Assembly (NCBI GenBank): GCA_016931085.1
Contig: JAFGFO010000113.1
Coordinates: forward strand, 1 to 5,437
DNA length: 5,437 nt
Direction: 5' to 3'
DNA from: Thermoflexales bacterium
Lineage (GTDB): Bacteria; Chloroflexota; Anaerolineae; Fen-1058
The notes under the pieces were generated by a model, which made no database searches, was not told the DNA's origin, and worked only from the letters and a program-made list of their open reading frames with translations. The position numbers were made by a program, and so were the translations under genes. Below, one piece after another: positions 1 to 4,707 of this stretch (position 1 is the first letter of the stretch; the number at the start of each line of letters is the position of its first letter).

Positions 1-201
1 AACCTGGGTATACATCCCTTCGAATTGGGCCAGTTGGGCCTGGTAGGAAGGGATCTGGCTCGTTCAGACCGGGGTCCAGGCCAGGGGGAAGAAGGCGATC
101 ACGACGTTCTTCTTGCCACGATAGTCGCCCAGGCGAACGATCTGCCCCTCGTGGCTCTTGAGGGTGAAATCGGGGGCTGGCTGCCCCACTTTGAGCACCA
201 T
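1..201 (-). CDS. Selenocysteine-containing peroxiredoxin (AhpC/TSA family), N-terminal part, TGA recoded as Sec
   Basis: Reduces peroxides in the cytoplasm through a nucleophilic Cys or Sec. The 67 visible codons read MVLKVGQPAPDFTL, then GDYRGKKNVVIAFFPLAWTPV, a TGA, and TSQIPSYQAQLAQFEG. The 'G..APDF.L' opening and 'FFPLAWTPx' followed by a charged/aromatic helix are typical of peroxiredoxins. In this family P-x3-T-x2-C carries the peroxidatic cysteine. Here P39, T43 and codon 46 (TGA, bases 64-66) keep the exact spacing. There is no other stop, and homology-like sequence continues in the same frame, so this is not a natural end or a frameshift. TGA is a true stop in two neighbouring genes, so code reassignment is unlikely. 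The start ATG (199-201) has GGAGGA six bases upstream. No resolving cysteine is visible in the part present. The gene runs off the left edge; about 150-160 residues would be usual. The alternatives are a nonsense mutation or a sequencing error (TGC/TGT to TGA). Confidence 0.85.
14..54 (-). promoter_or_regulatory. Candidate bacterial SECIS stem-loop
   Basis: In the mRNA sense (reading from 54 down to 14), AUCCCUUC (54-47) pairs perfectly with GAAGGGAU (21-14). Inside it, CCAG (43-40) pairs with CUGG (33-30) around a six-base loop GCCCAA (39-34). The hairpin spans 41 bases and begins nine bases after the UGA. The apical loop starts with a G, 24 bases after the UGA. Bacterial SECIS elements typically lie just 3' of the UGA inside the coding region, with an apical loop about 16-37 bases away and a G among the first loop bases, so the geometry fits. 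The interior between the stems is asymmetric (3 against 8 bases). Base pairing is seen directly. SelB binding is inferred. Confidence 0.65.
64..66 (-). other. In-frame TGA at the peroxidatic Cys position (Sec recoding site)
   Basis: The codon is TGA on the minus strand (TCA on plus) and is residue 46 of the peroxiredoxin. It sits three residues after the conserved Thr43 and seven after Pro39, where the family has its catalytic cysteine. Selenocysteine commonly replaces catalytic redox cysteines, and selenocysteine peroxiredoxins are known, for example PrxU of Eubacterium acidaminophilum. The identification rests on motif alignment and the hairpin downstream. The Sec machinery genes (selA, selB, selC, selD) are not in this window. 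Confidence 0.82.
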
Positions 202-207
202 AGTTTA

Positions 208-213
208 TCCTCC
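208..213 (-). promoter_or_regulatory. Ribosome binding site of the peroxiredoxin
   Basis: GGAGGA on the minus strand, six bases before the ATG at 201-199. It is a near-ideal Shine-Dalgarno. It fixes the start codon and argues that the truncated-looking reading frame is actively translated rather than a relic. Confidence 0.8.
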
Positions 214-271: not shown

Positions 272-300
272 ATTATACACCAGAAGTGCAGACATGCCAG
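272..300 (-). promoter_or_regulatory. Sigma70-type promoter of the peroxiredoxin
   Basis: A perfect -10 box TATAAT (277-272) lies 17 bases from a -35-like CTGGCA (300-295; 4 of 6 to TTGACA). Transcription would start near 265, giving a leader of about 64 bases that contains the palindromic hairpin. The promoter lies between the regulator's stop (330) and the peroxiredoxin start, so the peroxiredoxin can be expressed on its own. Confidence 0.6.
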
Positions 301-329: not shown

Positions 330-1136
330 CTACTCGCAGCTCTCCATCGCGCGGGCAAACAGCGAGCGATCCTCTTCTTGAATGATCTCTAGCGCTCGAT
401 CGCCTAGCAGAGCCAATATCTGGGGCAGGTATAGATCGGTGCGCAGATGGTGCTCGGCGATAAAGACCAGCAGCGGCGAGCTGGTCCACGAGGCGCGCGC
501 CTGGCTCGCCGTCAGCCACTCGCCCACCAGGACCTCGGCGGCGTCAATCACCAGGATCAAGCCCAAACCCCTGGCCTGGCTGAGCGTCTCCCCAGAGACA
601 GAAGCGACGACCACCTGACAGCCGGCTATGGGCAGATCACCCGTGGTGTAAATGACCACGCGCACCCCCCGCCGGACGGCCGCCTCCAATGCCGGCTGCA
701 GACCCGGGAAGGTGGCCGGCAAGAGCGCCAGGTAAATCCGCTGCCTGGCCTGTTCAATCATCTCAAGCGCCTTGCTGACGATGTTGTCGTGCCCCTCGAT
801 ATTCCACACATATTCCAGGTCAGGCGTCGAGGCAAACGCAGTCAAGTCAGCCTTGAGGCCGGCGATGAGCTGCTGCTGCTCGCCGAGCATTTGGTCGAGG
901 AATTCATCGGCCGGCACCGGGGCGTACTTGACGCCATCATTCGTGCGAAGCGTCAGGGCCGCGCCGCTGGCAATCAGCTTGCCGGCCACTTCGTAGATCA
1001 TAGAGCGAGGAACACCCGACAGCTTGGAAAGCTCGTAGCCTGTCACGGGACTCTTGCGAAGCAAGGCCACGTAAGCCTTGGCCTCGTATTCCGAGAAACC
1101 GATTTTGGTCAACTTCTCGATCGGATCATCGCCCAT
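330..1136 (-). CDS. TrmB-family transcriptional regulator
   Basis: A 268-residue one-component DNA-binding regulator. Residues 6-60 form the TrmB-type winged helix: 'KLTKIGFSEYEAKAYVALL' followed by 'TGYELSKLSGVPRSMIYEVAGKL', a very typical opening in which the SGVPRSMIYE helix is the recognition helix. Residues 76-102 look helical and link to a C-terminal sensor domain (about 107-268) beginning 'NIEGHDNIVSKALEMIEQARQRIYLALLP', as in the phospholipase-D-like effector domain of TrmB proteins. In archaea such domains bind sugars. The ligand here is unknown. The ATG is preceded by AAAGGGG with six bases of spacing after the G run. It lies upstream of, and in the same direction as, the peroxiredoxin (128 bp gap), and divergent from the WYL regulator. 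No clear terminator was seen after its stop, so read-through into the peroxiredoxin is possible. A cysteine in the sensor domain (IAGCQV) and one near the end (MESCE) could sense redox, but that is speculation. Confidence 0.9.
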   Translation of the reverse strand: MGDDPIEKLTKIGFSEYEAKAYVALLRKSPVTGYELSKLSGVPRSMIYEVAGKLIASGAALTLRTNDGVKYAPVPADEFLDQMLGEQQQLIAGLKADLTAFASTPDLEYVWNIEGHDNIVSKALEMIEQARQRIYLALLPATFPGLQPALEAAVRRGVRVVIYTTGDLPIAGCQVVVASVSGETLSQARGLGLILVIDAAEVLVGEWLTASQARASWTSSPLLVFIAEHHLRTDLYLPQILALLGDRALEIIQEEDRSLFARAMESCE

Positions 1137-1294: not shown

Positions 1295-2257
1295 ATGAGC
1301 AACGTTGCAACGCGCTTGCTGTCGCTGATCATGCTGCTTCAATGCAGGTCCAGTTGGAAGGCGAGTGATCTGGCGGGCGAGCTGGATGTTTCAGAGCGCA
1401 CAGTTCATCGCTACATGGAGATGCTGGAAGAAATGGGCATCCCGCTTTACTCAGAGCGGGGTCGTTACGGCGGCTTTTCGCTGGTGCGCGGGTACAAGCT
1501 GCCGCCCTTGATCTTTACGGCTGAAGAGGCAACGGTGCTCTACATGGGCGCGAACCTGGTCAAGGAAGTGTGGGGGCAGACCTACGCGCAGGCTGTCACG
1601 GCGGTCACGGCCAAGCTGGACAACGTACTGCCGGACGAGCTGCGCCAGGCGGTGGCCCACGCCAGGCTTTGCCTGGTGGTGGAAGGGCTGGCCGGCCGGG
1701 ACTATCGTCCCTGGGAGCCAACGATCCACACGCTGCGCCAATGCGTCGAGGGACGGCGCTGCGCTCGTCTGCGCTACCAGGCGATGGCGCGCCAGGAAGA
1801 AAGCGAGCGCGTGGTCGAGCCTTACGCGTTGGCTTTCCAGTGGGGGTTCTGGTACACAGTCGGCTTTTGCCATCTGCGGCAGGCGGTGCGCATGTTCCGG
1901 GTGGATCGCATCCGGCAAGTGGAAGCCCTGGACGAGCGCTTTGTGATGCCGGCCGATTTTTCGGCGCGAGAATACCTGGCGCATGCTTTGCGCTACGAGT
2001 CGGTCTACAAGGTAACCGTGCACATGGACGCCAGCGTGGCGCGTGGGGTGCGGGAGGGTCACGCTCACTGGCTGGAAATCGACGATCACGACGATGGCTC
2101 GATCACTGTGCGCTTTGGCACGGCTAACCTCGATTGGGCAAGCGGCTGGGTGCTGAGTTATGGGCCGGCCGCGGTGGCACTGGAGCCGCCCGAGCTGGTG
2201 GAGCGCGTGCGCACGGCGGCTGAAGGGGTGCTGCGCCGCTACAACAGGCTCAGTTGA
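1295..2257 (+). CDS. WYL-domain helix-turn-helix transcriptional regulator (YafY/DeoR-like)
   Basis: A 320-residue single-polypeptide regulator. Residues 6-62 are an HTH_11/DeoR-like winged helix: 'KASDLAGELDVSERTVHRYMEML' gives the helix-turn-helix and 'RGRYGGFSL' the wing. The central part holds a WYL domain (about 140-215), a ligand-binding fold linked to sensing nucleotides or nucleic acids. The signature is slightly altered, W186-Y187-T188 rather than W-Y-L, and is followed by the usual 'RMFRVDRI' strand. The C-terminal 100 residues fit the WCX dimerisation extension. The length is normal for the family. The start has GGAG five bases upstream. The gene is divergent from the TrmB gene across a 158-bp region and converges on the radical SAM gene, overlapping it by 19 bp. 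The target genes are unknown. WYL regulators control DNA-repair, stress and defence genes in various bacteria, but nothing here shows which. Confidence 0.92.
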   Translation: MSNVATRLLSLIMLLQCRSSWKASDLAGELDVSERTVHRYMEMLEEMGIPLYSERGRYGGFSLVRGYKLPPLIFTAEEATVLYMGANLVKEVWGQTYAQAVTAVTAKLDNVLPDELRQAVAHARLCLVVEGLAGRDYRPWEPTIHTLRQCVEGRRCARLRYQAMARQEESERVVEPYALAFQWGFWYTVGFCHLRQAVRMFRVDRIRQVEALDERFVMPADFSAREYLAHALRYESVYKVTVHMDASVARGVREGHAHWLEIDDHDDGSITVRFGTANLDWASGWVLSYGPAAVALEPPELVERVRTAAEGVLRRYNRLS

Positions 2258-3108
2258 GTCGCCGCTTGAGGCTGGTAGGGGGTCATGCCTATCGCCAGGC
2301 CGTAGCGGCCGCACAACTCGCCCAGGAGCTTGGCCAGGCGGCCGGCGTTGTTGGCCGCGCAGGAATAGCGCTCCCCAAAGCGCCGTTCGTACTTTTGCCT
2401 CAGACCGGGGAACAAGTGGTCCAGGCGCTCGTAATAGTACGCTCTCTGCCGGTCGCGCAAGGTCATGCCAAACGCCGGGATGATGTAGCTGGCGCCGTGC
2501 TCGTGCGCTTGGGTGGCGATGGCGGCGATGTTGTCCTCGTTATCCTCGATGAAGGGCAAGACAGGCATCATGGCGACGCCCGTGTAGATCCCGTGCGCCG
2601 CCAGGCTTTGCATGGCCGCAAATCTGGCCGAGGGAGGCGGCGCGAAAGGTTCCAGCTTCCGGGCCAGTTCGTCGTCGGCCGTCGTGATGGTGAAACTGAC
2701 AGCGGCGTAGCGCTGCTTGATCTCGATCAGGCTGTCCAAGTCGCGCAGCACCAGGTCGCTCTTGGTGACGATGTGGACGGGGAAGCCAAAGCGGGCGATG
2801 ATCTCCAACGCGCGGCCGGTCAGGTTGAGTTGGCGCTCCAGTGGCATATACGGATCGTTCATCGAGCCGGTACCCACCGTGCCCTTGACGCGCTTGCGGG
2901 CCAGCTCTTTTTGGAGCAACTCGAGGGCATTCACCTTGACCAGCACCTCGCCGTCAAAGTCCTCGATCTGGTAGCACTCGCTGCGGCTGTCGCAGTAAAT
3001 GCAGCGATGCATGCAGCCCCTGTACAGGTTCATGGTATAGTGGATGCCGAACCACGGATCGGGCTGCTTGGCGTGCGACAGCAGTACTTTGGCCTGGATC
3101 TCTTTCAT
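2239..3108 (-). CDS. SPL-family (spore photoproduct lyase-like, Rv2578c-type) radical SAM protein
   Basis: A 289-residue radical S-adenosylmethionine enzyme. Cys32, Cys36 and Cys39 in 'RGCMHRCIYCDSRS' form the CX3CX2C motif that holds the 4Fe-4S cluster, in the 'YTMNLYRGC' context typical of this family. 'GTGSMNDPYMPLERQLNLTGRALEIIARFGFPVHIVTKSDLVLRDLD' is the next strongly family-like block. The family is related to spore photoproduct lyase, but its members in non-spore-formers have no firmly established reaction. A short C-terminal region (about 230-289) follows the barrel. The length is normal for the shorter members. The start is supported because the family's conserved N-terminus begins only a few residues before 'PDPWFG'. 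Its 3' end overlaps the WYL gene tail to tail, and no partner enzyme is adjacent. Confidence 0.92.
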   Translation of the reverse strand: MKEIQAKVLLSHAKQPDPWFGIHYTMNLYRGCMHRCIYCDSRSECYQIEDFDGEVLVKVNALELLQKELARKRVKGTVGTGSMNDPYMPLERQLNLTGRALEIIARFGFPVHIVTKSDLVLRDLDSLIEIKQRYAAVSFTITTADDELARKLEPFAPPPSARFAAMQSLAAHGIYTGVAMMPVLPFIEDNEDNIAAIATQAHEHGASYIIPAFGMTLRDRQRAYYYERLDHLFPGLRQKYERRFGERYSCAANNAGRLAKLLGELCGRYGLAIGMTPYQPQAATQLSLL

Positions 3109-4368: not shown

Positions 4369-4387
4369 TGGCCTGGGGGCATGTCGC

Positions 4388-4416
4388 TTGACATACTCAC
4401 TCAATGCACTTATAAT
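4388..4416 (+). promoter_or_regulatory. Perfect consensus sigma70 promoter upstream of the response regulator
   Basis: TTGACA (4388-4393), a 17-base spacer and TATAAT (4411-4416) match the sigma70 consensus at both boxes with the optimal distance. It starts only 20 bases after the hydrolase stop. The predicted start near 4423 lies about 289 bases before the response regulator's ATG. Confidence 0.85.
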
Positions 4417-4446
4417 CGGCCTGACGCGATTTGGCATAGACGCCAC

Positions 4447-4707
4447 ATGAATACAAAAGAGCGGGAGGTATTCGGGCGCGCTGGCAAAGGCGTGAGACGA
4501 ATGAGCAGCTTTTGCCATCCACATCACATGGACCCGTTCTCCACGAAAAACGGGAAGACGAAATTGGCCTATGGGCGGGCTCCTGCGGATACTCTGGAAA
4601 TCTTGAGCTTCTACCTCACCGAAGAGGGAATGGCCGAGATCGTCCAGGACGACTATTTGAAAATCTCGCAGAGGAAGCTGCAAGCCTACGTCCATTGGCC
4701 CGGGTAA
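4447..4707 (+). CDS. Small ORF of unknown function ahead of the response regulator; possible gene remnant
   Basis: An 86-codon reading frame that I do not recognise with confidence. I chose the ATG at 4447 because the earlier in-frame ATG at 4381 lies upstream of the promoter; 4501 and 4528 are other options. None has a convincing Shine-Dalgarno, which weakens the case. The second half looks more coding, with G/C-rich third positions: 'LEILSFYLTEEGMAEIVQDDYLKISQRKLQAY'. That stretch resembles in style the C-terminal helices of periplasmic PstS-like or other ABC substrate-binding proteins (F..FL..EGQ.IV...GY), so it could be a remnant or a diverged fragment. The resemblance is weak. The stop (TAA) is four bases before the response regulator start, which suggests translational coupling. 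The whole 4369-4711 stretch otherwise holds only the promoter, and I see no tRNA, riboswitch or terminator in it. Confidence 0.35.
   Translation: MNTKEREVFGRAGKGVRRMSSFCHPHHMDPFSTKNGKTKLAYGRAPADTLEILSFYLTEEGMAEIVQDDYLKISQRKLQAYVHWPG

What the first reader, a model, noticed from the sequence alone, without database searches (positions are those of the whole stretch)
1..201. Selenocysteine peroxiredoxin hidden behind an in-frame TGA
A peroxiredoxin N-terminus reads without interruption except for one TGA, which replaces the peroxidatic cysteine exactly (P39-x3-T43-x2-codon 46). Conserved-looking sequence (TSQIPSYQAQLAQFEG) continues in the same frame. The gene has a strong RBS and promoter. Random nonsense mutations would rarely hit precisely this codon. 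Selenocysteine peroxiredoxins are known but uncommon, and the combination with this AhpE/BCP-like motif, TPV-Sec-T, would be missed by standard gene calling.
Basis: partly seen in the sequence, partly recalled or inferred. Interest (0 to 1): 0.9.

Follow-up and report, generated by a model that had tools for sequence, protein, structure and literature searches.

The report
Selenocysteine peroxiredoxin gene, truncated at edge
The start of a gene for a peroxide-destroying enzyme carries a TGA codon that is most likely read as selenocysteine rather than stop, as in most of its close relatives found in Chloroflexi bacteria; this kind of enzyme is already known.

Summary
Window 1-201 (-) encodes the first 67 residues of an AhpE-like peroxiredoxin, with one in-frame TGA (64-66) at the peroxidatic cysteine in P39-xxx-T43-xx-U46. 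It is not a random nonsense codon: of the 80 best related loci from public genomes, 78 have TGA there, 2 have Cys codons, none TAA or TAG. A hairpin follows, its loop 27 nt after the TGA. Over 79 sequences this region folds far better than codon-preserving shuffles (mean -19.7 against -13.8 kcal/mol, sd 0.30). Sec genes occur in relatives' genomes, all four in four isolate genomes. All 80 loci also carry a C-terminal WCxxC motif of glutaredoxin type. A Cys clade nests inside the Sec clade; the three Cys DNAs examined keep only part of the lower stem. Most likely: a selenocysteine peroxiredoxin, probably fused to its own glutaredoxin. Sec peroxiredoxins are already catalogued (PMC13188914, passages); I found no Sec-Prx/Grx fusion in print with my searches. 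Limits: the window ends at residue 67, its genome is not held, and its best-scoring hairpin loop lacks the canonical G.

The parts
1..201 (-). 5' part (67 codons) of an AhpE-like peroxiredoxin gene, cut off by the left edge of the window
   Evidence: Translation with TGA read as U; Pfam AhpC-TSA 64.9 bits; M. tuberculosis AhpE is the best PDB match, E 2.1e-13
64..66 (-). In-frame TGA, codon 46, proposed selenocysteine at the peroxidatic position
   Evidence: TGA at the aligned codon in 78 of 80 relatives' loci, Cys codons in the other 2
14..54 (-). Putative bacterial SECIS hairpin: lower stem AUCCCUUC/GAAGGGAU (54-47 with 21-14), upper stem GGCC/GGCC (40-37 with 31-28), loop 36-32
   Evidence: -17.4 kcal/mol; all 8 lower-stem pairs form in the window; family-wide folding beyond codon-preserving shuffles
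209..213 (-). Shine-Dalgarno GGAGG, 7 nt before the ATG
   Evidence: Read directly from the sequence
272..300 (-). Sigma-70-like promoter CTGGCA-17-TATAAT
   Evidence: 10 of 12 consensus matches, mean 0.1 sites in shuffles

Best explanation
The gene encodes a selenocysteine-containing peroxiredoxin of a Chloroflexota bacterium, most likely of the Anaerolineae. UGA 46 is decoded as Sec by SelB and tRNA-Sec with the help of a hairpin just downstream. The selenolate attacks H2O2 or an organic hydroperoxide and becomes a selenenic acid (inferred from peroxiredoxin chemistry). In the full protein this is probably reduced by a C-terminal glutaredoxin domain (C-x-x-x-C-x-x-C) on the same chain, possibly through a Cys at about position 77; this amounts to an AhpE/mycoredoxin pair fused into one enzyme. 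Shown: TGA at the catalytic position, its conservation, RNA structure beyond coding in the family, Sec machinery in relatives, the second domain in relatives. Inferred: Sec insertion in this cell, the fusion in this gene, the host's identity, and the catalytic cycle.
For: TGA at the aligned codon in 78 of 80 loci, never TAA or TAG. Cys at that position in 117 of the 120 listed protein homologues. For nt 10-56 counted from the TGA in 79 sequences, mean MFE -19.67 against -13.80 (sd 0.30, lowest -14.56) in 100 shuffles that keep each protein and each codon column; in the 46 sequences of the window's register the third-codon-position pair 18-48 is TA 15, AT 9, CG 8, GC 2 and pairs in 74% against 41% (highest 61%) in shuffles. 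Matches over the curated cut-off in 48 relatives' genomes: selB 41 (2 of 14 controls), selA 39 (1 of 14 controls), selD 44 (2 of 14 controls), most of the selD matches over cut-off having one in-frame TGA themselves; tRNA-Sec at 62 bits or more in 37. All four are present in the genomes behind L044, L064, L070 and L078. The 3 Cys-codon DNAs examined form at best 3/8, 4/6 and 3/6 of the lower-stem pairs, against a median of 100% in the 79 TGA sequences. WCxxC near residue 180 in 80 of 80 loci. The WYL regulator gene in the window, complete by its domains, ends in TGA, which speaks against a general recoding.
Against: The window's own genome is not held, so its Sec genes are unseen. [quoted passage not shown] a fold whose loop begins with G is 3.4 kcal/mol weaker. 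Only 49 of 79 sequences have that G. The window hairpin alone is only moderately better than shuffles (z -2.38; z -1.48). 14 of 79 TGA sequences form less than 83% of the lower stem and the lowest has 50%, so the ranges of TGA and Cys sequences overlap, and only three Cys DNAs were available. The shuffles do not keep the relatedness of the sequences. No single Sec marker was found in all 48 genomes; the chromosome-level record behind L002 lacks SelB over cut-off. Single-domain Sec relatives exist (L166 and others), so the window gene need not be a fusion.
Confidence: 0.93

Rival explanations
1. UGA is read as cysteine by an unusual tRNA (such as a tRNA-Cys with anticodon UCA), giving an ordinary Cys peroxiredoxin.
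For: Cys is the residue at this position in 117 of the 120 listed homologues. That such tRNAs exist is recalled, not from a call; I did not search for one.
Against: Sec machinery is common in relatives' genomes, structured RNA follows the TGA, and the 3 Cys-codon DNAs keep only part of the lower stem, as expected if the hairpin serves Sec insertion.
Confidence: 0.03
2. Nonsense mutation or sequencing error in a Cys peroxiredoxin gene (pseudogene).
For: One TGA in an otherwise open frame, seen in one stretch that is cut off after 67 codons.
Against: The same TGA is found in 78 of 80 loci from other assemblies, with ORFs open for about 200 further residues.
Confidence: 0.02
3. General reassignment of UGA to Trp or Gly in the host.
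For: Two database relatives show Gly and Trp at this position (P0002, P0005).
Against: In 77 of the 78 TGA loci the TGA is the only stop in the alignment to P0002 (L065 has a second), whereas Trp or Gly codons would be hit at many places. The window's WYL gene ends in TGA after its last domain. Trp or Gly could not serve as peroxidatic residue (established chemistry, recalled).
Confidence: 0.01
4. A Sec peroxiredoxin, but single-domain, without the glutaredoxin (an alternative within the best explanation, so its odds overlap with it).
For: Single-domain peroxiredoxins with TGA at this codon occur in the same class (L149-L154, L156-L158, L166). P0003, 70% identical over the query, has 172 aa and no glutaredoxin domain, with Cys.
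Against: All 80 loci of the close family have the C-terminal WCxxC, among them L004, L007, L017 and L023, 76-78% identical to the window.
Confidence: 0.15

Closest known systems
Bacterial Sec peroxiredoxin (Prx, PF00578, motif PxxxTxxU; the Eubacterium acidaminophilum type)
   Same: Same domain, Sec codon at the peroxidatic position, P39-xxx-T43-xx-U46 (motif and family from passages of PMC13188914)
   Different: Nearest relatives carry a C-terminal glutaredoxin-type domain; low score to NCBIfam PrxU (34.3 against cut-off 270, but only 67 residues could be given)
AhpE of Mycobacterium tuberculosis (1-Cys peroxiredoxin)
   Same: Best PDB match by sequence and, for the Cys relative P0004, by fold (TM-score 0.83-0.93 by AhpE length, 39-40% identity)
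   Different: TGA in place of the Cys codon; AhpE is reduced by the separate protein mycoredoxin 1 (passage and reference title in PMC10950700)
Cys peroxiredoxin/glutaredoxin fusions of Anaerolineae (P0004, P0006-P0009, P0011-P0013)
   Same: Same two-domain layout, 63-69% identity over the query stretch
   Different: Cys at position 46; with L043 and L062 they form a clade inside the Sec clade (support 100/99)
Prx5-type peroxiredoxin-glutaredoxin hybrids of Haemophilus (recalled)
   Same: Peroxiredoxin fused to glutaredoxin
   Different: Other Prx subfamily, no Sec (recalled, not tested)

Membership tests
Bacterial Sec peroxiredoxin | Peroxiredoxin (AhpC-TSA) domain | tested here: met
   64.9 bits against cut-off 26
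Bacterial Sec peroxiredoxin | UGA at the peroxidatic position, PxxxTxxU | tested here: met
   P39, T43, TGA 46; Cys aligned in 117 of the 120 listed homologues
Bacterial Sec peroxiredoxin | TGA conserved in other organisms, with Cys homologues elsewhere | tested here: met
   78 of 80 loci TGA, 2 Cys
Bacterial Sec peroxiredoxin | bSECIS hairpin with loop 16-37 nt after UGA | tested here: met
   Loop 27 nt after UGA in the window, 22-30 nt in 79 of 79 by predicted fold; range from passages of PMC13188914
Bacterial Sec peroxiredoxin | G in the first two loop positions of the bSECIS | tested here: inconclusive
   Absent in the window's best fold, present in a fold 3.4 kcal/mol weaker; 49 of 79 in the family
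Bacterial Sec peroxiredoxin | selA, selB, selC, selD in the same genome | tested here: inconclusive
   Window genome not held. In 48 relatives' genomes: selA 39, selB 41, tRNA-Sec of 62 bits or more 37, selD 44
Bacterial Sec peroxiredoxin | Selenium in the protein | not testable with these tools
   Needs mass spectrometry or 75Se labelling
NCBIfam NF040737 (PrxU) | Score above 270 bits | tested here: inconclusive
   34.3 bits for 67 residues of a truncated protein
AhpE | Closest peroxiredoxin of known structure by sequence and fold | tested here: met
   window; relative P0004
AhpE | 1-Cys mechanism without resolving Cys | tested here: inconclusive
   A further Cys at about position 77 in 69 of 78 Sec relatives; the window ends at residue 67
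Prx-Grx fusion | C-terminal glutaredoxin domain with CxxC | tested here: inconclusive
   WCxxC in 80 of 80 loci, Pfam Glutaredoxin in the two relatives scanned, P0002 and P0004; not visible in the window

The most novel reading that the evidence does not exclude
The window gene belongs to a large and mostly mis-annotated family of Anaerolineae enzymes in which a selenocysteine AhpE-like peroxiredoxin is fused to its own glutaredoxin. It would be a self-contained selenoperoxidase whose Se at residue 46 is recycled by the CxxxCxxC of the fused domain, and from which at least one lineage switched from Sec to Cys and let the SECIS decay while keeping Sec genes.
Probability: 0.75. Interest if true: 0.55.

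Novelty: new member of a known kind. Interest (0 to 1): 0.45.

Why it matters
It is a selenoprotein gene that ordinary gene calling cuts short: 78 genomic loci carry the TGA, yet among the best 120 of 723 protein-database hits only three look like traces of it (Gly, Trp, or an ORF ending at that codon). If the fusion holds, it offers a compact system for asking how a selenenic acid is recycled, and the nested Cys clade a natural experiment on losing selenocysteine.

Tried and rejected
Rfam search of the window gave one match, far below its gathering score. A viral-contig scan found no relative. Gene order gave no help with the host: among the 118 loci then held, with at most about 3 kb of flank for the first 80, the window's TrmB, WYL, hydrolase and 108-codon ORFs found nothing, the radical SAM gene one clear relative (38% over 278 aa, in the Cys locus L043) and the response regulator one weak one in L039. 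RNAalifold on all 79 sequences returned no structure; the likely cause is two registers of the lower stem (46 and 33 sequences), then counted apart. That split was made on the same sequences and favours pairing within each group; the MFE test does not use it. Before the split, mean pairing of the window's structure over 79 sequences was 70.8% against 67.8% in shuffles (highest 69.5%), so the single-register effect was small. Co-occurrence of selA with the TGA gene was not discriminating: selA is over cut-off in 315 of 396 genomes of the class, and, by my comparison of the two printed lists, in 27 of the 32 genomes with a P0002 match of 276 bits or more (G244 counted from its E-value; G014, G144, G222, G246 and G328 lack it). 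All 32 of those matches contain one TGA by the tool's stop count; one (G328) covers only residues 4-197, and the TGA position was not checked for those not also. The window's place beside L004 is weak (86/60). The genome scan found 128 relatives and kept the best 80; Sec genes were sought in the 48 genomes behind 48 of those 80 loci, whose completeness was not told.

Full report
What is in the window. The complementary strand of 1-201 encodes the first 67 residues of a peroxiredoxin, preceded by GGAGG 7 nt before the ATG and a promoter-like CTGGCA-17-TATAAT. Pfam AhpC-TSA matches at 64.9 bits, and the best solved structure by sequence is AhpE of M. tuberculosis. One TGA, codon 46, interrupts the frame. 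The gene is cut off at base 1.

Is the TGA meaningful? Of the best 120 homologues listed (723 found), 117 have Cys at position 46, one Gly, one Trp, and one ends just before it. The Gly (P0002) and Trp (P0005) proteins are the kind of entry produced when TGA is translated by another code; I could not see their DNA. A scan of genomes gave 128 relatives, of which the best 80 were kept. In these the codon is TGA in 78, TGT in one and TGC in one, the two Cys loci coming from one assembly. TAA and TAG do not occur. In 77 of the 78 the TGA is the only stop in the alignment to P0002; L065 shows a second one, but its frame of 248 residues has the WCxxC motif.

RNA structure. In the window the 52 nt from the TGA fold at -16.6 kcal/mol (z -2.38, 5 of 200 dinucleotide shuffles as good). 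In 79 sequences (78 loci and the window) I shuffled codons among sequences within each column and amino acid, which keeps every protein and the codon use of each column but not relatedness. Mean folding energy was -19.67 against -13.80, sd 0.30, in 100 shuffles; 63 of 79 sequences had z below -1, the window -1.48. Tested first with the window's structure on all 79, pairing was only slightly above shuffles (70.8% against 67.8%, highest 69.5%), because the lower stem occurs in two registers, best in 46 sequences (window included) and in 33. In the first, pair 18-48 is TA 15, AT 9, CG 8 and GC 2 and pairs in 74% against 41% (highest 61%) in 500 shuffles; in the second, 18-47 pairs in 91% against 73% (highest 85%); the other pairs are fixed by the protein or the codon columns and say little. 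The loop starts 22-30 nt after the TGA in 79 of 79, inside the 16-37 nt of the published bSECIS model, which also asks for G in the first two loop positions (PMC13188914, passages). That G is present in 49 of 79 and not in the window's best fold; a fold with G is 3.4 kcal/mol weaker. This is the weakest point for the window itself.

Sec machinery. The window's genome is not held. In 48 genomes behind the loci (47 with TGA, one with Cys), matches over the curated cut-off were selB 41, selA 39 and selD 44; among 14 control genomes the same searches passed the cut-off in 2, 1 and 2. Most of the selD matches over cut-off contain one in-frame TGA themselves. For tRNA-Sec the cut-off proved unspecific here (5 of 14 controls over it), so I count only matches of 62 bits or more, 37 of 48; the next match is 51 bits. 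Each of the 48 has at least one of the four. The chromosome-level record behind L002 lacks SelB over cut-off but has the other three. The genomes behind L044, L064, L070 and L078 (Levilinea saccharolytica, Anaerolinea thermolimosa, Leptolinea sp. HRD-7, Ornatilinea apprima by record title) have all four. In the class at large selA is over cut-off in 315 of 396 genomes, so co-occurrence is expected and proves little.

What the full protein probably is. All 80 loci have WCxxC near residue 180 (157 in L047, whose start is cut off) and proteins of 227-268 residues; Pfam calls the second domain Glutaredoxin in the two relatives scanned, P0002 and P0004. In the 78 Sec proteins the Sec position, C181, C185 and C188 are invariant, and C77 is present in 69 (L017 numbering). 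AlphaFold2 on P0004 (Cys form, 19-sequence alignment, mean pLDDT 87.9, pTM 0.72) shows two domains joined by a weakly predicted linker at 165-169; the model's best PDB matches are AhpE, over the first domain. AhpE is reduced by mycothiol and mycoredoxin 1, a glutaredoxin homologue (passage and reference title in PMC10950700). A Sec AhpE-like domain fused to a glutaredoxin would hold both halves on one chain. This cycle is inferred. The window does not reach the second domain, and single-domain peroxiredoxins with TGA at the same codon occur in the same class. Of 20 regions that I picked from the lower hits, 12 have TGA at this codon (L149-L154, L156-L158, L166-L168) and 8 Cys (L155, L159-L165); ten of the TGA ones stop 107-109 codons later, L168 after 122, and L167 runs on for 232.

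Evolution. In a 98-row tree 10 Cys fusions form one clade (100/99) whose sister is the Sec protein L053 (100/99), with L048 next (93/93). The simplest reading is a Sec-to-Cys change. P0002 and P0005 were labelled Sec in that tree by inference, and the lone Cys protein P0003 sits elsewhere with weak support (80/39). In the family of the Cys genome, 2 of 9 genomes have Cys fusions. The three Cys DNAs form at best 0.38, 0.67 and 0.50 of the lower-stem pairs; L053 and L048 form 1.00 and 0.88; the 79 TGA sequences have median 1.00, lowest 0.50, with 65 at 0.83 or more. So the decay is likely, but the ranges overlap and three sequences are few. The Cys genome G043 still has selB, selD and tRNA-Sec; no selA was found in it.

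Against what is known. Sec peroxiredoxins with PxxxTxxU are an established selenoprotein family (PMC13188914, passages; PMC1794560, passages), and three selenoproteins of three families were counted in Chloroflexi in 2006 (a table passage in PMC1794560). Fusion of a Sec Prx with a PP2C-type phosphatase is described (PMC2398784, passages). I found no description of a Sec peroxiredoxin-glutaredoxin fusion or of a Sec peroxiredoxin in Anaerolineae: the search for selenoprotein + peroxiredoxin + Anaerolineae gave 0 papers; no title or abstract start listed names one; none of the 10 papers listed holds 'Prx-Grx'; PMC12013277 has no occurrence of peroxiredoxin or glutaredoxin, and the passages of PMC9312934 name no such fusion. 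The library holds open-licence papers only, and I read passages, not whole papers. The window gene is therefore a new member of a known kind. The fused variant is the more novel reading and is likely, but not shown, for this gene.

Noticed in passing
4388-4416 (+): A perfect sigma-70 consensus promoter TTGACA-17-TATAAT (12 of 12; mean 0.3 promoter-like sites in shuffles) follows the hydrolase gene and precedes a response-regulator gene (4712 onwards).
   Followed up: partly
4381-4707 (+): A 108-codon ORF in the same frame as the hydrolase gene beyond its TGA stop; no Pfam or NCBIfam match. Probably not a read-through product, but unexplained.
   Followed up: no
330-1136 (-): TrmB-type regulator gene directly upstream of the peroxiredoxin on the same strand; no relative of it in the loci held.
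   Followed up: partly
1295-2257 (+) and 2239-3108 (-): A WYL-domain regulator and a radical SAM gene (Rv2578c/PA0069-like) overlap tail to tail by 19 bp. A radical SAM relative (38% identity) also lies about 2 kb before the Cys peroxiredoxin gene in L043.
   Followed up: no
L149-L154, L156-L158, L166: Single-domain peroxiredoxins in the same class with TGA at the same codon (mostly AFHPFAFT-x-x-U-DKQIPSY), four of them in genomes that also have the fusion: G022, G038, G014, G015.
   Followed up: partly
L043, L062, L119: Cys-codon Prx-Grx fusions; the first two nest within the Sec clade (L119 was not in the tree), and all three keep only part of the post-codon stem; a likely Sec-to-Cys switch.
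   Followed up: partly
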